DNA of 51,138 bases, taken from positions 1 through 51,138 of the forward strand of contig JACOTM010000043.1 in NCBI GenBank assembly GCA_016178305.1. The letters run 5' to 3'. Position 1 is the first letter of the stretch. The number at the start of each line of letters is the position of its first letter. Source of the DNA: Flavobacteriia bacterium. Lineage in GTDB: Bacteria > Bacteroidota > Bacteroidia > Flavobacteriales_D > Crocinitomicaceae. The notes below the pieces were generated by a model that was given only the letters and a program-made list of their open reading frames with translations, was not told the DNA's origin and searched no databases. This document shows, in pieces, positions 9,901-24,260 of this stretch. The translations under genes were made by a program, and so were the position numbers.

Positions 9901-10878
9901 TATGTTCGTTTATGTAGAAGACGTTTCTGGAAAGGAGATTTTACAACAGATAAAATTTCTGCTTATCAAACATTATATACGTGTTTAGAAACAATTGCAA
10001 TTTTGGGTTCGCCGATTGCTCCGTTCTTCATGGATCAATTGTTCTCTGATTTAAATGCCGTAACGAAAAGACATACAGCAACTTCTGTACATTTAGCAGA
10101 TTTCCCGAAAGTGAATGAAGCGTTGATTAATCCAGAATTGGAAAACCAAATGAATGTTGCGCAACGCGTTTCTTCATTGGTATTAGGAATCCGTAAGAAA
10201 GAGAAAATTAGAGTTCGTCAGCCATTGCAAACGATAATGGTACCAACTTTGAGCAAAACGTTCTCAGACAACATTACACACGTTCAAGACTTGATTTTAT
10301 CAGAAGTGAATGTGAAAGAATTACATTTGTTAGAAGAAGGAAGTGGTGTGATTGTAAAAAGCATCAAAGCCAACTTCAAAACAATCGGACCAAAATACGG
10401 TAAGCAAATGAAAGCAATTGCTGAATTAGTAAAAGGTTTCACATCGGAAGACATTGCAACAATTGAGAAAAATACAGGTTGGAACGGAACGATTGATGGT
10501 GAAAATATTCAATTAGATTTAGCCGATTTCGAAATTTTAGCGCAAGATATTCCAGGATGGTTAGTAAGTACAGAAGGTGATTTAACAGTTGCCTTAGACG
10601 TTACGATTAGCGAAGAATTAAGAGCAGAAGGAATCGCAAGAGAATTGATCAATAGAGTTCAAAACTTACGTAAAGAATCTGATTTCGAAGTAACAGATAA
10701 AATTCAATTAACCGTTGAATGTTCGCCAGAAATTCAAAAAGCAATTGCTGAAAATCAAGCGTATGTTTGTAATGAAGTATTAGCAACTGAAATTACATTC
10801 AATACCTTAGGGGATAAAGCCTTTGTGATTGATTTAGTAGAAGAAGGTGATGCTAAAATTGAGTTAGCGAAGCAATAA
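6949..10878 (+). CDS. ileS: Isoleucyl-tRNA synthetase with enlarged editing domain
   Basis: The product charges tRNA-Ile with isoleucine in the cytosol. The HIGH-type signature is GLPGIHHVMAR (HH at 59-60), followed by KRKAGWDTHGLPVE; the second signature KMSKR is at 856-860. Editing (CP1) hallmarks are FLAWTTTPWTLPSNTAL and GDFVTTNDGTGIVHIAPTFG. The anticodon-binding domain follows (FVSDQLSNWYVRLCRRRFW) and then a C-terminal DUF5915-type tail. At 1309 residues it is about 170 longer than the roughly 1130 I expect for Bacteroidota. The excess is in CP1: before FLAWTTTPW, around residues 305-375, and a block of about 95 residues at 446-540 that is Lys/Asn/Ile-rich and AT-rich. The frame is intact. 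A terminator follows. Confidence 0.95.
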   Translation: MSQKYQEYKGLNLPNVAQTVLEKWEKEKVFEKSISTRDEDKQYVFFEGPPSANGLPGIHHVMARSIKDIFCRYKTLKGFQVKRKAGWDTHGLPVELGVEKELGITKEDIGSKITVDDYNKACKEAVMRYTDIWNDLTHKMGYWVDMEDPYITYEPKYMESVWWLLGQLYEKNLIYKGYTIQPYSPKAGTGLSSHELNQPGCYRDVKDTTVVAQFKIKPIERELAINIDELHDEAQNTLHKIPLVGIENVIYDLQEEINEDIYFLAWTTTPWTLPSNTALCVGQNIEYVLVKMPNHLGIIVNVILAKDRLWANYNWKQVLVKLKDYQIDPDKTSVIDAYNKITKEKIENNINTFDAFKLIINLGLIEDVEIIYENILGSHLVGIKYEQLLPYALPAETPEKAFHVISGDFVTTNDGTGIVHIAPTFGADDARVAHEAGVPAMLVPKLETKESFIERWSNRYIDIPILSAETFTNIYSSSIDFNERLNELINSKYENLVLDIKTSLNNLKTKNINDTIDLLKNIDKNEILDLIGHEWELARKGNLVPLVDLTGRFRTEVKDEVFGLSQEYVKADYLTDEEKATELGIQKEKLKSIIPDLKAYMSVDERIALKLKIENKAFKIEKYEHSYPHCWRTDKSVLYYPLDSWFIRVTDVKERMIELNNTINWKPESTGSGRFGKWLENVNDWNLSRSRYWGIPIPIWSSAEGDERIIISSVEQLKAECEKAVQAGVMDANPLADFVVGDMSKENYAKIDLHKNYVDTITLVSASGKPMKRESDLIDVWFDSGAMPYAQWHYPFENKDLIDNRKGYPGDFIAEGVDQTRGWFYTLHAIATMVFDSVAYKNVVSNGLVLDKNGQKMSKRLGNAVDPFTTLEKYGPDATRWYMITNAQPWDNLKFDLEGITEVQRKFFGTLYNTYSFFTLYANIDGFDYSTPDVAWNERPEIDRWILSKLNSLIKEVDEAFEIYEPTKAGRLIQEFVSDQLSNWYVRLCRRRFWKGDFTTDKISAYQTLYTCLETIAILGSPIAPFFMDQLFSDLNAVTKRHTATSVHLADFPKVNEALINPELENQMNVAQRVSSLVLGIRKKEKIRVRQPLQTIMVPTLSKTFSDNITHVQDLILSEVNVKELHLLEEGSGVIVKSIKANFKTIGPKYGKQMKAIAELVKGFTSEDIATIEKNTGWNGTIDGENIQLDLADFEILAQDIPGWLVSTEGDLTVALDVTISEELRAEGIARELINRVQNLRKESDFEVTDKIQLTVECSPEIQKAIAENQAYVCNEVLATEITFNTLGDKAFVIDLVEEGDAKIELAKQ

Positions 10879-10897
10879 ATAAGCAATATTTTATTTT

Positions 10898-10928
10898 TAG
10901 AAGCTGTCCAATTTGGATAGCTTTTTTT
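10898..10928 (+). terminator. Rho-independent terminator after ileS
   Basis: The 10-bp stem AAGCTGTCCA / TGGATAGCTT (one G-T pair) with a short AT loop is followed by seven T residues. Confidence 0.85.
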
Positions 10929-11021
10929 ATGATAATTCAAAGTTATACTTTGAATTATCATGATAATTCAAAGTATAACTTTGGATTATCATGATAATTC
11001 AAAGTATAACTTTGGATTATC
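10929..11021 (+). repeat. Three tandem 31-bp palindromes upstream of the DUF4143 ATPase
   Basis: The units are at 10929-10959, 10960-10990 and 10991-11021, directly abutting. Each has 12-bp arms GATAATTCAAAG / CTTTGAATTATC (one mismatch, G for A, in the right arm of units 2 and 3) around a 5-bp asymmetric core. The core is TTATA in unit 1 and TATAA in units 2 and 3, so unit 1 is in opposite orientation. In units 2 and 3 core plus arm give TAACTTTG on the plus strand (10976-10983 and 11007-11014), a perfect -7 promoter element; unit 1 gives the same on the minus strand. The last is 44 nt before the ATG at 11058. Confidence 0.85.
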
Positions 11022-11057
11022 ATGAATATTTTTATATATTTGTATAAATATTAGAAC

Positions 11058-12200
11058 ATGCGAATAGATAGAAAACAGGTATTTATAGATAATGATGGAC
11101 AAAGTATTTTCTTTTGGGGTGCACGTCAAACGGGAAAAAGTACTTTGTTGAAAAAGTTATTCCCAAATGCCTTACTTTTTGATTTGTTACTATCGGATGT
11201 ATATAAAAGATTATTAACGAATCCAGAATATTTAAGAGAAACGATTTTAGCACAAGATAAAAAGCTTGTAATCATTGACGAAATTCAGCGAATACCAATT
11301 TTGTTAAATGAAGTTCATTGGCTAATAGTAAACCACAATATTCAATTTATTTTAAGCGGATCAAGTCCGAGGAAAATCACACGATCAGGTGAAAATTTAT
11401 TAGGAGGAAGAGCATTAAAATATTCTTTATTCCCTTTAACGAGTACTGAAATACCAAATTTTGATTTGGAAAGAGCATTGAATAATGGATTATTACCAAG
11501 ACACTATTTATCAGAAAATCCTAAAAGAATGCTCGCTTCTTATATCGGTAATTATTTGCAGGATGAGATTGTAGCAGAAGCCAAAATTCGAAATGTTGAT
11601 ATTTTTGCAAGGTTTTTGAATGCCGCGGCTTTCAGCCAAAGTGAAATTGTCAACTTCACTTCAATTGCAACTGATTGTGGCGTTTCAGCAACAACAATTA
11701 AGGAATATTTTCAAATTTTAGAAGATACTTTATTGGGTTATTTCATTCCTGTATTTCAAAAGAAACCAAAGAGACGTGTCATAAAAGCACCAAAATTTTA
11801 TTTTTTTGATCTTGGAATTGTAAATAGTTTATTGAATCGTGGGAAAATTGAAAAAGGAAGTGAATTATTTGGTCACGCACTTGAATCGTTTATTTTTCAG
11901 GAATTAATAGCCCATAGACATTATTCAGGTTTAGAATATAAGATTTCATATTGGAGAACAGCTTCCCAAATTGAAGTTGACTTTATTTTAGGAGATCATG
12001 AAGTTTCTATTGAAGTGAAATCTTCTAATTTAATTTCTTCAAAACATTTATCAGGTTTAAAAGCATTTAGTGAGGAATATGAGGTTAAAAAATCAATTAT
12101 TATCTGTAACGAACCAATAGCCAGAATAATGAATGATATTCTAATTCTCCCATGGAAAGATTTTCTTGAAAATTTATGGAATGGAGAAATAATATATTAA
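11058..12200 (+). CDS. AAA family ATPase with C-terminal DUF4143 domain
   Basis: The 380-residue protein has a P-loop (GARQTGKS, residues 21-28), Walker B with D74-E75 (LVIIDEIQ), and a sensor-like FILSGSSPRK. A winged-helix-like linker (IATDCGVSATTIKEYFQIL) is followed by DUF4143, whose PD-(D/E)XK-like core is readable as GHALESFIFQEL...YWRTASQIEVDFIL...SIEVKSS. The family is common and often multicopy in Bacteroidota; its cellular role is unsettled, and it may be a nuclease-linked ATPase of accessory or defence type. There is no partner gene: ileS ends in a terminator upstream, and a MITE-like element begins exactly at its stop codon. The palindrome array in front probably supplies and regulates its promoter. 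Confidence 0.85.
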   Translation: MRIDRKQVFIDNDGQSIFFWGARQTGKSTLLKKLFPNALLFDLLLSDVYKRLLTNPEYLRETILAQDKKLVIIDEIQRIPILLNEVHWLIVNHNIQFILSGSSPRKITRSGENLLGGRALKYSLFPLTSTEIPNFDLERALNNGLLPRHYLSENPKRMLASYIGNYLQDEIVAEAKIRNVDIFARFLNAAAFSQSEIVNFTSIATDCGVSATTIKEYFQILEDTLLGYFIPVFQKKPKRRVIKAPKFYFFDLGIVNSLLNRGKIEKGSELFGHALESFIFQELIAHRHYSGLEYKISYWRTASQIEVDFILGDHEVSIEVKSSNLISSKHLSGLKAFSEEYEVKKSIIICNEPIARIMNDILILPWKDFLENLWNGEIIY

Positions 12201-12462
12201 CCTGAGTTCGATTATTATTTTATTGTCAGATCGCCTGTAAATGTTGAGATACGACTAAAAAGTTTTTGGAATAATGGATTATTTCAACAACTTTTTGGGA
12301 AGTAGATTGACATTTAGAAGTGAAAAGATGGAATTTGCTTTTTAAAGAATTAAAATATCCATCGTTTCGATTTTTTGATTTAGCCCGCTAAACCAATAAA
12401 ATAGCGCCTTGTCTATCTTAATTCTTTAAAATCTGACGGCAAAATAATAATCGAACTCAGGT
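12200..12462. mobile_element. MITE-like or IS-remnant element 1 (263 bp)
   Basis: The element is bounded by long terminal inverted repeats. The left end reads ACCTGAGTTCGATTATTATT and the right end is its inverse (AATAATAATCGAACTCAGGT); similarity extends inward to about 32 bp on each side (TCAGAT / ATCTGA). Both flanks show TATTA, a possible 5-bp target duplication. No transposase is encoded. The left junction falls on the stop codon of the DUF4143 ATPase. Its ends match element 2 at 24083-24183. The source IS family could not be identified from memory. Confidence 0.7.
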
Positions 12463-12607
12463 TATTAACCTGAGTGTAAAACTGTAATCGAAATCAAGTT
12501 TAAAAGCTAATGATGATAAATTTCTAAGAAAAATAAAGTTGACGTTACTTTAATCAAACACTTATTATTAATTTTACACCTTTATTAAATCTATCAACAT
12601 CTTAAAA
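12463..12607. other. Spacer with a degenerate mini-copy of the same inverted-repeat element
   Basis: Right after element 1, 12467-12500 reads like a left end (AACCTGAG) joined to a right end (TGTAAAACTGTAATCG then AAATCAAGTT), closely resembling the right end of element 2. The rest of the spacer is AT-rich leader before the 12608 gene, with no clear promoter motif. Confidence 0.45.
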
Positions 12608-15600
12608 ATGAAATATTTAATTGTTTTAATTTTCCTATTATCTATCATTAAAATTGAAGCACAAGATACTTTTGACAATGGCAAGGATTTTTGGTTTGCT
12701 TTTTTAGACAATAGAAGTGCTAGTGTTACAGATAATTTGGCTCCTATCACTTATAAAGTTAGCTTATCAGCAAGAGAAACAACTACAGGAACAATTGCTA
12801 TTCCACAGATAAATTGGAATTATAACTTTATAATCCCTGCAAATGAATCAATAGAAATAGAATTACCTGCCAATATCGTTGAAAACACACAATTTAATTC
12901 GATTCAAAAAAAAGGAATTCACATAACAGCATCGCATTCAATTTATGCAAACATGCTTAATCGCCGAACTTTTACCGGAGATGCATCTCAAATATTGCCT
13001 ATAGAAAACATAGGAAATTCTTATATATTAAACATGTACTCCTATTTAGCTCCTGTAACAAATACACCAAGTGGTGGGCATTCAGAATTTGTAATTGTTG
13101 CTACTGAAGACAATACCTTAGTTCAAATCACTCCAAAAGTAAATTTATTAAATCATGCCATAAATATTCCATATACAGTCTTATTAAATAAAGGTGAATC
13201 GTATCAAAATCAGTCAACTAGTTTATCTCAACATGTATCAGGAACAGAAATAAAAGTGTTAAATTCAACCTGTAAAAAAATTGCCGTATTTTCAGGATCA
13301 CAATCTACAGAAGCTATTTCAGCATGCGATGCGGCAGATCATATTTTTGATCAAGAAATCCCATTAAATCAATGGGGAACAACCTATTTTTTAGCTCCAT
13401 TTAAATACAGTTCTGTCTATTCAGCTCAAATAGTTGCTTCTCAAAACAATACAGTTGTAACAATAAACAACACAACTATAAATTTAAACAAAGGGCAAGC
13501 TTATTTAATTAATCCTTATGATTGGAATACATTTTCTACCCATAAAATCACTTCCAATTATCCGATTTCAGTTACACAATATATGCGGGGAAGTTCTTGT
13601 GCCGGATTTGGAGACCCTTCAGTTGTAAACCTTACACCTCAAACTACTGGAATAAAAGATGTCCATTTTCAAACTTTTTCATCACCAGGAATAGATACTA
13701 ATTACATTTCTATAATAACAGAAACATCTTATATCAATGAAATAATTTTAGACGGAGAATCTATAAATAGTAGCTTATTTATAAATTATACTTTTGATGC
13801 AGGTTATTCTTATGCTGTAATTCCTGTTTCTAAAGGTAACCATAACTTAACTTCAAACCATTTATGTAAAATTATGCTCTTTGGTTATGGCTTTCAAACG
13901 TATGAAAGTTATGCTATAAGTCTGGATCATTCAAATTTATATGTCAATAATAATCAAAATCAAACAACCATTTGTGCCAATAATAATATTCAATTAGCAG
14001 CTCCAACAAATGTCCAATCTCCTTGGTGGTCAACTGTAAATAATTCAACCGACACATTATACAATGGAAATAATTTACAATTAAATTATCCTTTTGAAAG
14101 TAATTTATATATACTAAACGGATTTGATTCGATTGCCAATTGTGAATCAAAATTATATTACAATGTTTCTAGTAATGTAGCTCCTTTATATGAATTACAT
14201 GTCCCTAATGATACAATATGTAAAAATGAAAACCCAAATATTTCAATAGATTTTTTAACAGAATCGGATTATTACAATGTTGAATGGTTACCGTCCAATG
14301 ATTTTAGCAACGATTCCCTTTTTTCAACGCAATTAATCTCAACAGAAAGTAAATGGTATTATGTTCGGATTACACCCAAAAATTATACGAATACTCCTTG
14401 TTTTTATGTTTTGGATAGTTTTTTTGTTCATCAACTAAATAGCGAAATAATCAGTCAAGGAATTGAGATTTCAAATAAATATTTATGTGGAATTGACTCA
14501 ACAACTTTATCAGTGGAAATACAAAAAAGTATTTTTCACGACGATTTTAATTCAGGATCTGCAAATTCAAATTGGTCTAGTTTAATTTCTACTACTATTA
14601 GTACTGCTTGTAATTCAACTTCAAATGCTTTAGTTTTTAACGGATCAACACCTATAAGAATAGCAACATTTGGGACATTTGATTTATCCACAGGAGGTAC
14701 AATAAAAGTAACGGTTGATTGCGGAGGTACATGCAACAAACCTGAATTAAGTGATAAATTAATTTTACAATATTCTGTAAATAATGGAACTACATGGCAA
14801 ACATTATACAATTTTGTACCGAATAGTTTCCAATTAATAAGTAAACAGTTATTCTCAATTCCCATACCTGTTCTTAGTACTAATACGTTATTGCGTTTTT
14901 CCCAATCTTCTTTTGAAGGAGCTTCATTCGATATTTGGATTGTTGATGATGTTGAAATTTATCAAAATCAAAGTAATTATCCAATAACATGGTCACCTTC
15001 TCAACTTGTAGAAAACAATACATCACTTTCAACAATTGCACATTTAACAAATAACACTTGGTTTTACGCAAATTATTCATCTTTGGGTTGTGTGTATCAA
15101 GATTCTATTTTTGTAATTCGTGATACTTTTAATATTGATTTAACAAGTTCTCCTATTTCATGCACTAGTAATTCTGTCAATATTAATGCAATCTCTAATA
15201 CAAATTCGAATTTTGAAAGTGTATGGAATTTTAATGGAACAGAAATACCTATAACCAATACTGTAACGATTCCATTTAATATAATACAACAAGATCTGGA
15301 AATATCTGTATCTTCTGTATCTTCAAGTGGATGTAGTCAAAAAGACACCCTCATTTATCAAATACCAGAAAGTTATTTTGAAGTTGCATTTTCAGGAGAT
15401 TCAATAATATGTTTCGGGGATACTTTAAATTTTTCAGGGTTTTCTAGAAAAAGTTATTTCGATAATTTCAATGAAAGTGCGATAAATATGCAATTTTGGG
15501 ACAGTATTGTAGGAGGTAAATTAAGTACAGCTTGCAATGTTATTTCAGGTAATTCTTTACATTTTGATTCAAGTACAGTAAGATTGGCTCAAACAAGAGA

Positions 15601-18034
15601 GTTTAATTTTAGTCATGGCGGGCAAGTTTCTTTTGATATTTCGTATGGAAATGGAATAAATGGCTCAGGCTGCGGAATGACAAGCGGCACAGAATTTTCC
15701 CATTTTCAATACTCAACAGACAACGGTCAAACTTGGCAAGTAAAAGCTTATTTAACTTTTACAACTGGGTCAAGTACCTTTACGCATTATGATATAGATT
15801 TTCTACCCATTCAAACACCTGTAATTTTACGATGGATTCAACCAAGTCATACCAATGCTTACAATGATACTTGGAATCTTGAAAATATTCGAGTAACAGC
15901 CTCAAAAGATTCTACTCAAATAGTATGGACTGATGCTCAAAACCAAGTTCTTTCAACAAATAATATTATTTCGTTCGTTCCTTCGAATTCACAATATCTA
16001 TATGCAACAATCACTGATACGGTAAGCCAATGTTCTATTACCGATAGTATTCAGATAAAACTTGGAACTCCATTTACTTTGCAAATTCCCGATACAACTA
16101 TTTGTAATTATTCCACCGTCAATTTTATATATACACCAAATTTACCTAGTGGAAATGATTACACGTTTAACTGGCATCAAAATACAAATACTTACCATGA
16201 TTCAACTTTACAAATAACTTTAACAACATCAAGTCAAATTACAACTGAAATAATTTCTACAAATGGTTGCTCCATGAAAGATACTTTTTTTATTAATCTC
16301 AATCAAACAGGTTTTTCAGATGTTAAAATTGTTGGGGATAATGGAATTTGTTTAAATGACACAAGCACAATAAAAGCTTATCCAATTATCCAAAAAATTA
16401 CGTATAATTTTGATAATCTAACAACTTCAGCTTACACAGGTGGAGTAATAAATAACACTTATGGCTCTACCTCTGGAAATGCCCTCGTGTTTAATGGTGT
16501 TAATCCCCGAAAATTTGAAGGAAATAATTTGGGATTTAATATTTTACAAGGAGGATTGGTTGAATTTGATTTAAAATTTTGCGACAATAATACTTGTGAC
16601 GGTCCTGAAATTAATGAATATATTCTAGTACAATATTCAATAAATTATGGAAGTAATTGGACGACTTTTGATACCATTTTTGTGAATCATGATTCTTATT
16701 TTTCAACCTATCGTTTTAATCTTCCTCTAATTGCCTGTACAGCCAATACCAATTTTAGATTGCTTCAATCAACTGCATCTGGTAGTAATTTGGATATTTG
16801 GATATTGGATAATTTTTCAATGTATCGTTTATCAAACAGTGCTACTACTTATCAATGGTTAATGAACAATCAAGTGTTTTCAAATCTTTCTCAAATTGAT
16901 GTTTCCCCTACTTCTACTGTAAATTATACCATGCTGTTATCAACAATTGATAATCAATGTCATGTCTTAGATACCTTTGAAGTTAAAGTTAGTAACTTTA
17001 ATGTAAATGCTGGATTAGATTATAGTTATTGTGAAAATGAACAATATCAATTACAAGGAAATACGAATGCTATATCTCCTTTTGAAGTACATTGGAATAA
17101 TCCTTTAAGCTTGAATAATTCAACTATTTTAAATCCCACTATATTACATCCAGAAGATCAAACCTATGAATTAATGGTTATTAAAAATGGTTGTATTAAA
17201 TTGGATTCTGTTTATTTGCATGTTAACGCAATTGACTCCATAATTGATTCTGTAAGTATTTGTAGTGGTAGTAATTATACTTTCCAAGATGGTTATTTAG
17301 CTACGAATATTACCGCTCCACTTTCTCATACTTGTACTTTCACCAATCAAAATGGGTGCGATAGTATGATCATTACTCATTTAGCCATTTACAATGTTAG
17401 TTCAACCGTTGATTCTATAAATATTTGTAGTGGTAGCAATTATACTTTCCAAGATGGTTATTTAGCTACGAATATTACCGCTCCGTTTTCTCATACTTGT
17501 ACTTTCACCAATCAAAATGGGTGCGATAGTATGATTATAACACATCTTTTACCACAAAATATTAATTCAAGTATTAGTGTAATGAATGATACTCTATTTG
17601 CTCAAGAAGGAATGGATATATATCAATGGTTGGATTGTGATTTGAATTCAGAAATAATTGGAGCTCAAAACCCAATATTCATCCCAAGTTATAATGGAAC
17701 ATTTGCTGTAATCATTCAAAACGAATCTTGTGTAGATACATCTGTATGTGAAACAATTTCAGATTTAAAAGTCGAGAAGATTATGTCAAATTTGAAAATA
17801 CATATTTGTCCAAACCCTTCAGAAGGAATATTTAATATCACACTCGGAAATAATAAATGGGATGAATATTCAGTTAGAGTTTTAGATTTAGTTGGACAAG
17901 AAATTTATGTAAAAGAATATTATTTAATAAATTCATTCACATTGGATTTTCTAGAACAACCAGAAGGTATTTATTACTTAGAAATTGGAAACAAAACTAA
18001 TTTTATTAGGGAAAAAATATTACTAATAAAATAA
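12608..18034 (+). CDS. Giant T9SS-exported surface protein with IgGFc-binding-like N-terminus
   Basis: The 1808-residue protein starts with a signal peptide (LIVLIFLLSIIKIEAQ). Residues about 25-440 resemble the IgGFc-binding-protein N-terminal domain (GKDFWFAFLDN, SEFVIVATEDNTLVQITP, SGTEIKVLNSTCKKIAVFSG, DHIFDQEIPLNQWGTTYF). Then come three reelin/MAM-like beta-sandwich modules, each with a ...DKLILQYSVNNGTTWQTLY... type strand and ending near FDIWIVDDVEI, interspersed with PKD/Ig-like stretches. Near the C-terminus two 55-residue units are almost identical (ICSGSNYTFQDGYLATNITA). The last 80 residues are a type A T9SS sorting domain (CPNPSEGIFNITLG ... PEGIYYLEIG). It is most likely a secreted or surface-attached adhesin. 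No secretion genes are nearby, which is normal for T9SS cargo. Confidence 0.85.
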   Translation: MKYLIVLIFLLSIIKIEAQDTFDNGKDFWFAFLDNRSASVTDNLAPITYKVSLSARETTTGTIAIPQINWNYNFIIPANESIEIELPANIVENTQFNSIQKKGIHITASHSIYANMLNRRTFTGDASQILPIENIGNSYILNMYSYLAPVTNTPSGGHSEFVIVATEDNTLVQITPKVNLLNHAINIPYTVLLNKGESYQNQSTSLSQHVSGTEIKVLNSTCKKIAVFSGSQSTEAISACDAADHIFDQEIPLNQWGTTYFLAPFKYSSVYSAQIVASQNNTVVTINNTTINLNKGQAYLINPYDWNTFSTHKITSNYPISVTQYMRGSSCAGFGDPSVVNLTPQTTGIKDVHFQTFSSPGIDTNYISIITETSYINEIILDGESINSSLFINYTFDAGYSYAVIPVSKGNHNLTSNHLCKIMLFGYGFQTYESYAISLDHSNLYVNNNQNQTTICANNNIQLAAPTNVQSPWWSTVNNSTDTLYNGNNLQLNYPFESNLYILNGFDSIANCESKLYYNVSSNVAPLYELHVPNDTICKNENPNISIDFLTESDYYNVEWLPSNDFSNDSLFSTQLISTESKWYYVRITPKNYTNTPCFYVLDSFFVHQLNSEIISQGIEISNKYLCGIDSTTLSVEIQKSIFHDDFNSGSANSNWSSLISTTISTACNSTSNALVFNGSTPIRIATFGTFDLSTGGTIKVTVDCGGTCNKPELSDKLILQYSVNNGTTWQTLYNFVPNSFQLISKQLFSIPIPVLSTNTLLRFSQSSFEGASFDIWIVDDVEIYQNQSNYPITWSPSQLVENNTSLSTIAHLTNNTWFYANYSSLGCVYQDSIFVIRDTFNIDLTSSPISCTSNSVNINAISNTNSNFESVWNFNGTEIPITNTVTIPFNIIQQDLEISVSSVSSSGCSQKDTLIYQIPESYFEVAFSGDSIICFGDTLNFSGFSRKSYFDNFNESAINMQFWDSIVGGKLSTACNVISGNSLHFDSSTVRLAQTREFNFSHGGQVSFDISYGNGINGSGCGMTSGTEFSHFQYSTDNGQTWQVKAYLTFTTGSSTFTHYDIDFLPIQTPVILRWIQPSHTNAYNDTWNLENIRVTASKDSTQIVWTDAQNQVLSTNNIISFVPSNSQYLYATITDTVSQCSITDSIQIKLGTPFTLQIPDTTICNYSTVNFIYTPNLPSGNDYTFNWHQNTNTYHDSTLQITLTTSSQITTEIISTNGCSMKDTFFINLNQTGFSDVKIVGDNGICLNDTSTIKAYPIIQKITYNFDNLTTSAYTGGVINNTYGSTSGNALVFNGVNPRKFEGNNLGFNILQGGLVEFDLKFCDNNTCDGPEINEYILVQYSINYGSNWTTFDTIFVNHDSYFSTYRFNLPLIACTANTNFRLLQSTASGSNLDIWILDNFSMYRLSNSATTYQWLMNNQVFSNLSQIDVSPTSTVNYTMLLSTIDNQCHVLDTFEVKVSNFNVNAGLDYSYCENEQYQLQGNTNAISPFEVHWNNPLSLNNSTILNPTILHPEDQTYELMVIKNGCIKLDSVYLHVNAIDSIIDSVSICSGSNYTFQDGYLATNITAPLSHTCTFTNQNGCDSMIITHLAIYNVSSTVDSINICSGSNYTFQDGYLATNITAPFSHTCTFTNQNGCDSMIITHLLPQNINSSISVMNDTLFAQEGMDIYQWLDCDLNSEIIGAQNPIFIPSYNGTFAVIIQNESCVDTSVCETISDLKVEKIMSNLKIHICPNPSEGIFNITLGNNKWDEYSVRVLDLVGQEIYVKEYYLINSFTLDFLEQPEGIYYLEIGNKTNFIREKILLIK
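17246..17560 (+). repeat. Tandem 165-bp duplication inside the T9SS protein gene
   Basis: The copy starting at 17246 is repeated from 17411 (period 165 bp, 55 codons) with few changes; both encode ICSGSNYTFQDGYLATNITA and CTFTNQNGCDSMIITHL. The low divergence suggests a recent or homogenised duplication. Confidence 0.85.
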
Positions 18035-22640: not shown

Positions 22641-24083
22641 ATGGAAAAACTTCAGAATTTTATTGATGGAAAGTATATTGCTCCGAATAGCAATGCTTAT
22701 TTTGATAATATAGAACCTGCAACAGGACAAGTTTATAGCTTGATTCCGGATTCTGATTCAGAAGATGTTGAATTGGCTGTAAAAGCAGCTGAAAAAGCAT
22801 TTCCAATCTGGTCTAAAATGTCAATAGAAGAAAGAAGTGCTATTTTGATCAAACTTTCAGAAGGAATTGAAAAACGCATGGATGAATTTGTTCAAGCTGA
22901 ATCAAAAGATAATGGGAAACCTGTTTCTTTAGCAGCTCACATTGATATTCCAAGAGCCGTTTCTAACTTTCATTTTTTTGCAACTGGAATTATACATTTT
23001 GCTTCTGAATCGCATTATATGGAAGGTATAGGTGTAAATTATACGCTTCGTAAACCGATTGGAATTGTTGGTTGCATTTCGCCTTGGAATTTACCTTTAT
23101 ATTTATTTTCATGGAAAATAGCTCCTGCCTTAGCGACTGGAAATTGCGTCATTGCTAAACCTTCTGAAATTACACCATATACAGCTTATTTATTAGGGAA
23201 AGTAGCACAAGAATCCGGAATGCCTGATGGTGTTTTAAATATTCTACATGGATTTGGACATAAAGTGGGTGATGCAATAGTCAAACATCCAAAAATTAAA
23301 GCAATTTCATTTACAGGTGGAACGAAAACAGGCGAATATTTAGCAAGAACGGCTGCACCTATGTTTAAAAAATTATCCTTAGAATTAGGTGGAAAAAATC
23401 CTGTTATCATTTTTGCTGATTGTGATTTTGATGATATGCTGAGCACAACTATTCGTTCTTCCTTTGCAAATCAAGGTCAAATTTGCTTATGTGGATCACG
23501 TATCTTGATTGAACGTTCTATTTATGATAAATTTAAAGACGCATTCATTGCAAAAGTTTCAAAATCTGTTGTTTCTTACCCTTCTGATCCAAAAGCTAAT
23601 CTTGGAGCTATTGTATCACAACCACACATGGAAAAAATACTTTCTTACATTGAATTAGCAAAAGAAGAAGGAGGTACCATCTTAACCGGTGGTGAACGTG
23701 TAATTTTAAATGCACCTTACGAAAATGGGTATTACATTCGACCTACAGTTATTGAAGGTTTAGCGTATGATTGTAGAACGAATCAAGAGGAAATTTTTGG
23801 TCCGGTTGTAACAATTACCCCTTTTGATACAGAAGAAGAAGCTTTAATGATCGCAAATTCTACACAATACGGTCTTCAAACAACTTTATGGACTTCAGAT
23901 TTAAAGCGTGCACATCGTATTGCAGACGAAGCTCAATCAGGTATTGTATGGATTAATTCTTGGTTAGTAAGAGATTTAAGAACCCCTTTTGGCGGAACAA
24001 AAGCGTCTGGAGTTGGAAGAGAAGGCGGCTGGGAAGCATTGAGATTTTTTACTGAACCCAAAAATGTATTTGTTAAATATTAA
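22641..24083 (+). CDS. NAD-dependent aldehyde dehydrogenase, ALDH8 / muconic-semialdehyde type
   Basis: The 480-residue protein is a full-length ALDH that oxidises an aldehyde to its acid with NAD(P)+. Visible signatures are ISPWNLPLYLFSWKIAPALA (cofactor and substrate tunnel), KPSEITPYTA, FTGGTKTGE, the general base E248 in LELGGKNP, the catalytic C282 in GQICLCGSR, and EEIFGPVVTITPF. The LCGSR context and overall sequence resemble 2-aminomuconate or 2-hydroxymuconate semialdehyde dehydrogenases, used in kynurenine or aromatic breakdown, but no other pathway gene is adjacent, so the substrate is uncertain. The terminal TAA is at the junction with the inverted-repeat element. Confidence 0.9.
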   Translation: MEKLQNFIDGKYIAPNSNAYFDNIEPATGQVYSLIPDSDSEDVELAVKAAEKAFPIWSKMSIEERSAILIKLSEGIEKRMDEFVQAESKDNGKPVSLAAHIDIPRAVSNFHFFATGIIHFASESHYMEGIGVNYTLRKPIGIVGCISPWNLPLYLFSWKIAPALATGNCVIAKPSEITPYTAYLLGKVAQESGMPDGVLNILHGFGHKVGDAIVKHPKIKAISFTGGTKTGEYLARTAAPMFKKLSLELGGKNPVIIFADCDFDDMLSTTIRSSFANQGQICLCGSRILIERSIYDKFKDAFIAKVSKSVVSYPSDPKANLGAIVSQPHMEKILSYIELAKEEGGTILTGGERVILNAPYENGYYIRPTVIEGLAYDCRTNQEEIFGPVVTITPFDTEEEALMIANSTQYGLQTTLWTSDLKRAHRIADEAQSGIVWINSWLVRDLRTPFGGTKASGVGREGGWEALRFFTEPKNVFVKY

Positions 24084-24183
24084 CCTGAGGAGTTCGATTA
24101 CTATTTTGCAATCAGATCACCTATAAATAGGGAAAAAAGCTTTTCAATTAAATTTGAGTGTAAAATATTAATCGGACTCAGGT
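24083..24183. mobile_element. MITE-like element 2 (101 bp)
   Basis: The ends are ACCTGAGGAGTTCGATTA and (inverse) TAATCGGACTCAGGT. About 45 bp of the left side resemble element 1 (GTTCGATTA, TATTTT, TCAGATC, CCT, TAAAT), with a 2-bp insertion near the tip. The flanks are TTAA on both sides of CCTGAG...CTCAGG. As in element 1, the left tip lies on the stop codon of the upstream gene. It has no coding capacity and could fold into a long hairpin and act as a transcript end. Confidence 0.65.
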
Positions 24184-24260
24184 TAATAATATATTACGTA
24201 AATTCTAAATAATTTTCGTTAACTATCCTCACTTTTATTTCACGTCTAAAAAGATTGACG

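What the first reader, a model, noticed from the sequence alone, without database searches (positions are those of the whole stretch)
10929..11021. Flipped-core palindrome array that doubles as tandem promoters of the DUF4143 ATPase
Three abutting 31-bp palindromes share 12-bp arms, but the 5-bp asymmetric core is inverted in the first unit relative to the other two. Two arms around an asymmetric core resemble a site-specific recombination or dimeric-regulator site. The core-arm junction produces TAACTTTG, the -7 promoter element, rightward in units 2 and 3 and leftward in unit 1, so core orientation would decide promoter direction. This could be an orientation switch or an operator array controlling an accessory ATPase whose function is unknown.
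Basis: partly seen in the sequence, partly recalled or inferred. Interest (0 to 1): 0.65.

Follow-up and report, generated by a model that had tools for sequence, protein, structure and literature searches.

The report
Gene-specific operator array of defence-candidate ATPase
The three palindromes are not a promoter-flipping switch but most likely a private docking site through which a widespread, uncharacterised, suspected anti-phage ATPase controls its own gene, and many relatives of that gene carry their own differently spelled version of such a site.

Summary
In detail: three abutting 31-bp palindromes (10930-11022) lie between ileS and a DUF4143/AAA_14 gene (11058-12200), and the 5-bp core of unit 1 is reversed. 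The interpretation mostly fails. Across 16 orthologs (7 genomic contexts) the core is variable. Conserved are the half-site CTTTGGATTATCAT, repeated every 31-32 bp in 14 of 16, and one promoter (TTTG-N19/20-TAnnTTTG) whose -33 box lies inside the last half-site in 16 of 16; 14 of 16 have no second -7 box.

The pattern is wider than this gene. DUF4143 genes carry upstream repeats far more often than neighbouring genes (p=8e-13; second set p=4e-8), often at a 31-34-bp period, about three helical turns. Paralogs in one genome show no shared motif; the motif follows the protein across genomes. About half of the genes show no strong repeat. Best explanation: the gene product, an AAA+ / winged-helix / PD-(D/E)XK-like protein of PADLOC candidate class PDC-S01, binds its private array and represses itself. 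Binding and repression are inferred, not shown. I found no description of this in the papers searched. The strong hairpin is peculiar to this copy.

The parts
10901..10928 (+). probable rho-independent terminator of ileS, abutting the array; boundary, not part of the system
   Evidence: Read by eye (AAGCTGTCC-loop-GGATAGCTT followed by a T run).
10930..10960 (+). operator unit 1 (core TTATA, reversed)
10961..10991 (+). operator unit 2 (core TATAA); forward half-site CTTTGGATTATCAT 10979-10992
10992..11022 (+). operator unit 3 (core TATAA); forward half-site CTTTGGATTATCAT 11010-11023 holds the -33 box
11011..11014 (+). TTTG, Bacteroidota-type -33 promoter box, inside the last half-site
   Evidence: TTTG-N20-TATATTTG; the same geometry (N19 or N20) in 16 of 16 orthologs. 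Promoter consensus recalled.
11035..11042 (+). TATATTTG, -7 promoter box
   Evidence: starts at -23 or -24 from the ATG in 16 of 16 orthologs.
11058..12200 (+). DUF4143 / AAA_14 ATPase, 380 aa, PADLOC class PDC-S01; the presumed binder of the array
   Evidence: Pfam AAA_14 1e-20 and DUF4143 7.9e-36; PDC-S01 9.4e-58; AF2 model pLDDT 91.4.
11103..11453 (+). AAA_14 ATPase domain (residues 16-132): P-loop G21-R23-G26-K27, Walker B D74-E75, R118
   Evidence: residues invariant in 28 aligned homologs.
11595..11747 (+). winged helix-turn-helix (residues 180-230), presumed DNA reader; helices 180-192, 200-207, 211-223
   Evidence: secondary structure, read by eye; weak match to the Rex repressor model over 172-215 (E 0.13, 11.8 bits, far below its cut-off).
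11841..12167 (+). C-terminal PD-(D/E)XK-like nuclease part (residues 262-370) with E306, D308, E319, K321
   Evidence: Residues invariant in 28 homologs; motif recognised from memory; PD-(D/E)XK assignment for PDC-S01 from PMC12988326 (passages). My fold search hardly tested this part (note).

Best explanation
The array is the cognate operator of the gene that follows it. The product (AAA+ ATPase + winged helix + PD-(D/E)XK nuclease-like domain, PADLOC candidate-defence class PDC-S01) binds the 31-32-bp-spaced half-sites on one face of the helix, probably as a cooperating multimer. Because the last half-site contains the -33 box, bound protein would shut off its own promoter. Many DUF4143 paralogs have their own 'address' sequence with similar geometry, so they can coexist in one genome without cross-regulation. 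Shown: the array, its overlap with the promoter, its conservation with the gene in different contexts, enrichment of such repeats across the family, motifs that follow the protein and are not shared by paralogs of one genome, and the lack of another cluster among the listed hits in the own genome. Inferred: that the gene product itself is the binder, that the sign is repression, and that the protein works in anti-phage defence.
For: (1) 16 of 16 orthologs in 7 contexts have one promoter whose -33 box lies in the last forward half-site; 14 of 16 have at least one more forward half-site 31-32 bp further up. (2) In 4 genomes, 43 scored DUF4143 upstreams against 273 upstreams of other genes nearby: p=8e-13, 19 of 43 above the control 95th percentile, 8 above the 99th; in other genomes of the phylum, 39 against 276, p=3.8e-8, 21 of 39 above the 90th. 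(3) Strong direct repeats of period 31-34: 8 of 43 vs 2 of 273, and by their printed sequence both of those 2 are divergent neighbours sharing a DUF4143 array; second set 7 of 39 vs 0 of 276. Over periods 10-80, 32 is the only one with p<1e-3 in the pooled sets. (4) Cross-genome pairs: upstream similarity exceeds downstream similarity where proteins are alike (75-95% identity: medians 30.2 vs 15.4, 77 of 78 pairs; 60-75%: 27 of 30; 45-60%: 149 of 239, p=2.9e-7) and not below 45%. Without the window's own ortholog group it holds: 16 of 17, 27 of 30, 77 of 110 (p=7e-7), and 150 of 267 at 35-45% (p=0.04). Paralogs within one genome show no excess in 5 genomes tested. (5) In the own genome no other cluster of the half-site is among the listed hits; the motifs of the two other paralogs tested also cluster only at their own gene, 2 copies 32 bp apart and 4 copies at 33/33/33. 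(6) Model: AAA + winged helix; top Foldseek rows Cdc6/Orc1 on origin DNA (2qby) and human ORC (8s0c), both E 1.6e-4, with poor global superposition; best VIA rows archaeal ATPases 2qen and 2fna, then NLR/CED-4-type cores. (7) Outside Bacteroidota: a perfect 19-bp inverted repeat before the DUF4143 gene in Treponema succinifaciens; a suggestive 32-bp direct repeat in the archaeon Methanomethylovorans (no control there).
Against: No binding, transcription or phage data. About half of the DUF4143 genes show no strong repeat (20 of 43 and 18 of 39 not above the control 90th percentile). In the second set 0 of 39 exceed the control 99th percentile, and the 32-bp period as such is only p=0.019 there and not its best period. 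Outside Bacteroidota the signal is weak (17 loci vs 71 controls, p=0.006); of 8 named plasmid loci I count 2 strong, 2 suggestive and 4 near background. The winged-helix sequence does not track the motif better than the ATPase or nuclease part. Pairs are not independent. Half-sites with up to 4 mismatches have a background of 143 hits in 93,699 bases of the ortholog loci outside the array. Activation rather than repression is not excluded.
Confidence: 0.76

Rival explanations
1. The array is a cognate site of the same protein, but its main role is not repression: it is a loading, docking or target site for the ATPase-nuclease (origin-like, as for Cdc6/Orc1, or a parking site that keeps the nuclease off).
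For: AAA + winged-helix architecture, with origin-bound Cdc6/Orc1 first in Foldseek and STAND switches high in VIA; nuclease-motif residues conserved; arrays of up to four forward half-sites look like more than one operator needs.
Against: The last half-site overlaps the promoter with fixed geometry (16 of 16), which a mere dock would not need; some members seem to have only a single palindrome.
Confidence: 0.12
2. A different transcription factor binds the arrays.
For: None direct; the binder is not identified in this work.
Against: Paralogs have private motifs with shared geometry, and the motif moves with the gene across contexts and genomes; a separate regulator would have to be private to each paralog, and no neighbouring gene cluster is shared by all 7 contexts.
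Confidence: 0.06
3. Invertible element or recombination site whose core orientation sets promoter direction.
For: The core of unit 1 is reversed relative to units 2 and 3.
Against: Core not conserved, second TAnnTTTG absent in 14 of 16 orthologs, no recombinase seen by eye among the ORFs listed nearby, TTTG spacing 23 rather than 19-21.
Confidence: 0.02
4. RNA-level element: a long hairpin in the leader or at the ileS 3' end.
For: One hairpin over the whole array, z -16.5; the arm change in units 2 and 3 is a G-U-compatible pair.
Against: The array lies upstream of the conserved promoter; in the 15 other orthologs z runs from -7.0 to -0.2 (several are still below -3), and position 5 pairs in only 4 of 16 (plus one G-U) although its base is conserved in the forward half-site. 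All Rfam matches are below the gathering scores.
Confidence: 0.03

Closest known systems
PDC-S01 (PADLOC phage-defence candidate; DUF4143/AAA_14 ATPases)
   Same: The gene matches 7 PDC-S01 models, best 9.4e-58; reported as the fourth most common defence across all prokaryotes and as ATPase fused to PD-(D/E)XK (PMC12988326, passages).
   Different: No gene-specific operator arrays or regulation are mentioned in the PDC-S01 passages that I read; the paper says validation is pending for most of these candidates.
Autoregulatory operators of winged-helix/HTH repressors (generic, from memory)
   Same: Inverted repeats overlapping the promoter of the regulator's own gene, co-inherited with it.
   Different: The presumed regulator is an AAA+ ATPase-nuclease; sites often come as 31-34-bp-spaced arrays; several paralogs in one genome each have a private site.
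Cdc6/Orc1 initiators with origin boxes next to their gene; iterons (from memory)
   Same: AAA+ plus winged helix, direct repeats beside the gene (fold match 2qby).
   Different: Low global TM-score (0.26); a nuclease-like domain is added; many paralogous loci per genome; no evidence of replication.
STAND ATPases (NLR, CED-4, Avs5) and archaeal ATPases 2qen/2fna
   Same: ATPase + winged-helix core: VIA Z 15.1 (2qen, rmsd 3.1, 238 residues), 14.5 (2fna), 13.5-11.6 for the NLR, CED-4 and Avs5 rows; a plant NLR (Rx1) binds and bends DNA (PMC4599002, abstract and passages).
   Different: No sensor repeats; the C-terminus is nuclease-like. Clamp-loader rows (Z 11.5 and below, ATPase part only) follow closely, so the STAND link rests on the longer alignment.
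RptR, repressor of a defence island (PMC12255303; listing and start of abstract only)
   Same: Defence genes under a dedicated repressor.
   Different: By its title RptR is a repressor of restriction-modification systems; here the candidate effector itself would be the regulator.

Membership tests
PDC-S01 / DUF4143 ATPase | AAA_14 and DUF4143 domains over the curated cut-offs | tested here: met
   74.5 bits vs 27 and 123.6 vs 28.1.
PDC-S01 / DUF4143 ATPase | match to PADLOC PDC-S01 models | tested here: met
   7 PDC-S01 models, E from 9.4e-58 to 2.3e-15 (no curated cut-offs given).
PDC-S01 / DUF4143 ATPase | Walker and PD-(D/E)XK residues present | tested here: met
   G26 K27, D74 E75, E306 D308 E319 K321 invariant in 28 of 28; motif recalled.
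PDC-S01 / DUF4143 ATPase | anti-phage activity | not testable with these tools
   Needs phage challenge.
Autoregulated operator | inverted or direct repeats overlapping the own promoter, conserved with the gene | tested here: met
   Last half-site over the -33 box in 16 of 16 orthologs, repeated at 31-32 bp in 14 of 16.
Autoregulated operator | motif follows the protein, not the genome or the flanks | tested here: met
Autoregulated operator | the gene product binds the site and alters transcription | not testable with these tools
   EMSA and reporter needed.
Invertible promoter / recombination site | conserved core between the arms | tested here: not met
   Core variable among 16 orthologs.
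Invertible promoter / recombination site | recombinase gene nearby, both orientations in a population | tested here: inconclusive
   No recombinase seen by eye among 8 ORFs; read-level inversion not testable.
STAND ATPase | NOD-type ATPase with winged helix | tested here: inconclusive
   Fold similarity over residues 1 to about 260, Z 13.5-11.6; STAND sequence signatures not tested.
STAND ATPase | C-terminal sensor repeats (recalled as typical) | tested here: not met
   Pfam shows only AAA and DUF4143 and the chain ends in a mixed alpha/beta part; so 'STAND-like core', not filed as STAND.
Iteron/origin (Cdc6/Orc1-like) | replication function of the repeat locus | not tested
   Only the fold similarity and the repeats are known.

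The most novel reading that the evidence does not exclude
PDC-S01/DUF4143 ATPase-nucleases are a family of 'privately addressed' switches: each carries its own DNA address (often a 32-bp-periodic array) that both shuts its gene and docks the protein in an inactive, Cdc6/Orc1-like or STAND-like assembly; an invader that dislodges or out-competes this assembly would at once derepress the gene and free the nuclease. The address would be the built-in self-ligand of one of the commonest candidate defence systems.
Probability: 0.14. Interest if true: 0.86.

Novelty: new variant of a known kind. Interest (0 to 1): 0.62.

Why it matters
PDC-S01 is reported as the fourth most common defence across all prokaryotes, still a candidate, with validation pending for most such candidates (PMC12988326, passages). 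A private, computable DNA address next to many of these genes would be a handle on what the proteins bind: it predicts the ligand for EMSA and structures, provides reporters to ask what induces them, and would explain how a dozen paralogs coexist in one genome without cross-talk.

Tried and rejected
Recombination or orientation switch, tandem promoters and RNA hairpin: rejected for the reasons given under the rivals. Rfam: 18 matches, all below gathering score, most of them microRNA hairpins over the array. Mobile unit with defined ends: relatives without the gene at ileS have different downstream DNA, orthologs sit in 7 contexts, and no precise empty site was found; unresolved. Phage-borne copies or decoys: no match in phages for 10000-12700, no array motif in viral contigs, no relative of the protein there (close relatives only). 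Array without the gene: 0 of the 394 other genomes of the class hold the exact two-half-site pattern, but an exact pattern is strict and would miss several of the ortholog arrays. Winged-helix-specific covariation: not found. Solved structure by sequence: one hit, E 0.24. NCBIfam: nothing over cut-off; PHROGs: none. Literature: DUF4143 in 1 paper; PDC-S01 in 3 of the 10 papers listed, passages read in 2; further term searches (listings) and passages of PMC4158269 gave nothing on such arrays. Subscription journals and preprints are mostly not held, so the work that defined PDC-S01 was not seen. One hint of regulation: a DUF4143 gene, TT_P0211 of Thermus thermophilus HB27, rose 6.6-fold with plasmid present in wild type (PMC4406477, section 7 read); the authors link this to Argonaute.

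Rows dropped before counts: set 1 used 44 of the 53 matches (9 left out: not fetched, weak or fragmentary), 43 of the 44 were scored; set 2 used 44 of the 45 non-own matches (one has a stop inside), 39 were scored (5 had under 80 nt of intergenic DNA). One search used 17 of the 19 loci not labelled Bacteroidota (L046 and L053 had no start codon in reach). One search read 8 loci that I chose from 40 listed of 502 plasmid records. In one search, bins with more than 250 pairs were sampled down to 250. Among the 16 orthologs, L032 has a broken frame and L041 and L058 are cut by contig ends; L026/L030, L028/L029 and L021-L023/L041 are near relatives, so 16 is not 16 independent cases. In one search most of the 78 pairs at 75-95% (61) lie inside the window's ortholog group; one search repeats the test without it.

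Full report
Observation. The three 31-bp palindromes are at 10930-11022, between ileS (with a terminator read by eye) and a DUF4143/AAA_14 gene at 11058-12200. They are far from chance. The core of unit 1 is indeed reversed (TTATA vs TATAA). Units 2 and 3 also carry one arm change, and the whole stretch is one large inverted repeat.

What is conserved. The protein search in genome contigs returned 40 loci. Upstream of the close orthologs (window, L020-L032, L041, L058: 16 loci, 72-100% identity in the best segment), in seven different gene neighbourhoods, lies the same kind of array. A scan for half-sites with up to 4 mismatches gives a forward copy of CTTTGGATTATCAT starting at -47 to -49 in 16 of 16, and in 14 of 16 at least one more 31-32 bp further up; L025 has four. 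(Background at this looseness: 143 hits in 93,699 bases of the loci, both strands, outside the array.) In 16 of 16 exactly one TTTG-N19/20-TAnnTTTG promoter is found on the coding strand in 260 bp, and its TTTG always lies inside the last forward half-site. In the window this is TTTG 11011-11014 and TATATTTG 11035-11042.

The core is not conserved. Across the core, TTTG and ATT pair in 14 to 16 of 16; position 5 is G in 40 of 45 forward half-sites but pairs in only 4 of 16, plus one G-U. So base identity, not pairing, is kept there: the mark of a protein-bound DNA site. RNA folding is exceptional only in the window (z -17.2; others -7.0 to -0.2).

Uniqueness. In the own genome (3.6 Mb, 124 contigs) the half-site with up to 2 mismatches has 106 hits; among those listed (best first, list cut) the only cluster is this array. 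An exact two-half-site pattern is present in 1 of 395 genomes of the class, the own one; this is strict.

The family. The own genome has 13 DUF4143 matches. Reading their upstream regions showed other repeats before several of them. To test this I scored the best direct or inverted self-match in up to 200 nt of intergenic DNA upstream of the genes in stretches around DUF4143 genes of four related genomes: 43 DUF4143 upstreams against 273 others, Mann-Whitney p=8.4e-13, 19 of 43 above the control 95th percentile, 8 of 43 above the 99th. The same scoring on other genomes of the phylum: 39 against 276, p=3.8e-8, 21 of 39 above the 90th, 10 above the 95th, 0 above the 99th. Strong direct repeats of period 31-34 occur in 8 of 43 vs 2 of 273, and 7 of 39 vs 0 of 276; by their printed sequence the two control cases are genes divergent from a DUF4143 gene that share its array. 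In the pooled sets period 32 is the only one of 10-80 with p<1e-3 (mean 15.4 vs 7.3, p=1.9e-5, 73 vs 453 genes); 31, 33 and 64 are slightly raised; in the second set alone period 32 is only p=0.019 and not the best. Three helical turns is the natural reading. About half of the genes show no strong repeat.

Who binds. If the array were read by the gene's own product, the motif should follow the protein. For 120 proteins, upstream similarity exceeds downstream similarity only where proteins are alike: 77 of 78 cross-genome pairs at 75-95%, 27 of 30 at 60-75%, 149 of 239 at 45-60% (p=2.9e-7), no excess below 45%. Since 61 of the 78 pairs lie within the window's own ortholog group, I repeated the test without that group: 16 of 17, 27 of 30, 77 of 110 (p=7e-7), and 150 of 267 at 35-45% (p=0.04). 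Pairs are not independent. Paralogs within one genome show no excess upstream similarity (G000, G001, G034, G002, G027; p from 0.13 to 0.95). The motifs of two further paralogs of the own genome, the two tested, cluster only at their own gene: two copies 32 bp apart and four at 33/33/33 bp. Against: the winged helix does not track the motif better than other domains.

Other lineages. For 17 homologs not labelled Bacteroidota against 71 controls p=0.006. Of eight named plasmid loci that I chose, scored without a control, Treponema succinifaciens has a perfect 19-bp inverted repeat and Runella (itself Bacteroidota) a long imperfect one; Methanomethylovorans hollandica has a 32-bp direct repeat and Simkania an inverted repeat of middling score; Wolbachia, Thermus, Sphingobium and Nitrosomonas are near the background.

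The protein. AAA_14 plus DUF4143, 7 PDC-S01 models of PADLOC, invariant Walker and PD-(D/E)XK residues in 28 homologs. AF2 model pLDDT 91.4 with helices 180-192, 200-207 and 211-223 fitting a winged helix. Foldseek: Cdc6/Orc1 on origin DNA (2qby) and human ORC share first place, E 1.6e-4, TM about 0.2-0.26, followed closely by other AAA+ proteins; VIA: 2qen Z 15.1, 2fna 14.5, then NLR, CED-4 and Avs5 rows, then clamp loaders. The plant NLR Rx1 binds and bends DNA and was modelled on Cdc6/Orc1 (PMC4599002, abstract and passages). PDC-S01 is reported as the fourth most common defence across prokaryotes, validation pending for most such candidates (PMC12988326, passages).

Mechanism. Shown by sequence: the private array, its overlap with the promoter, its descent with the gene. 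Inferred: binding by the gene product through its winged helix, cooperative along three-turn-spaced half-sites, repression because the -33 box is covered, release on an unknown signal. A possible hint of inducibility is the 6.6-fold rise of TT_P0211 in Thermus (PMC4406477, section 7), which its authors link to Argonaute.

The reversed core is then drift in a spacer that is free to vary, or a trace of how the array was duplicated; nothing here needs an inversion switch. The window's near-perfect arms are a peculiarity of this copy.

Verdict. An operator array with a known general role, but in a paralog-private form that recurs across a family of one of the commonest uncharacterised defence candidates, and that is not described in the papers searched.

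Noticed in passing
12195-12467: MITE-like element with 37-nt terminal inverted repeats (89%) at the stop codon of the DUF4143 gene; 38 matches in the genome, partial ones included, many near 70-75% identity, more in the window at 24078-24187.
   Followed up: partly
12608-18034: 1808-aa protein with IgGFc_binding, Reelin-type repeats and a secretion-system C-terminal sorting domain.
   Followed up: partly
L027:2433-2768: A 111-codon open stretch between ileS and the DUF4143 ortholog that looks (by eye, not searched) like a RhuM-type gene remnant; a similar-looking stretch lies upstream of the homolog in L048.
   Followed up: no
G000:C17:115239-115412 (L018) and G000:C16:1816-2106 (L019): Short or broken DUF4143 matches in the own genome (one with an internal stop), suggesting turnover of these genes.
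   Followed up: no
L032:3001-4136: Ortholog (72% identity) with a broken reading frame although its upstream array is kept.
   Followed up: partly
L184:622-3670 (Simkania plasmid pSn): DUF4143 ATPase gene annotated between two site-specific integrase genes.
   Followed up: no
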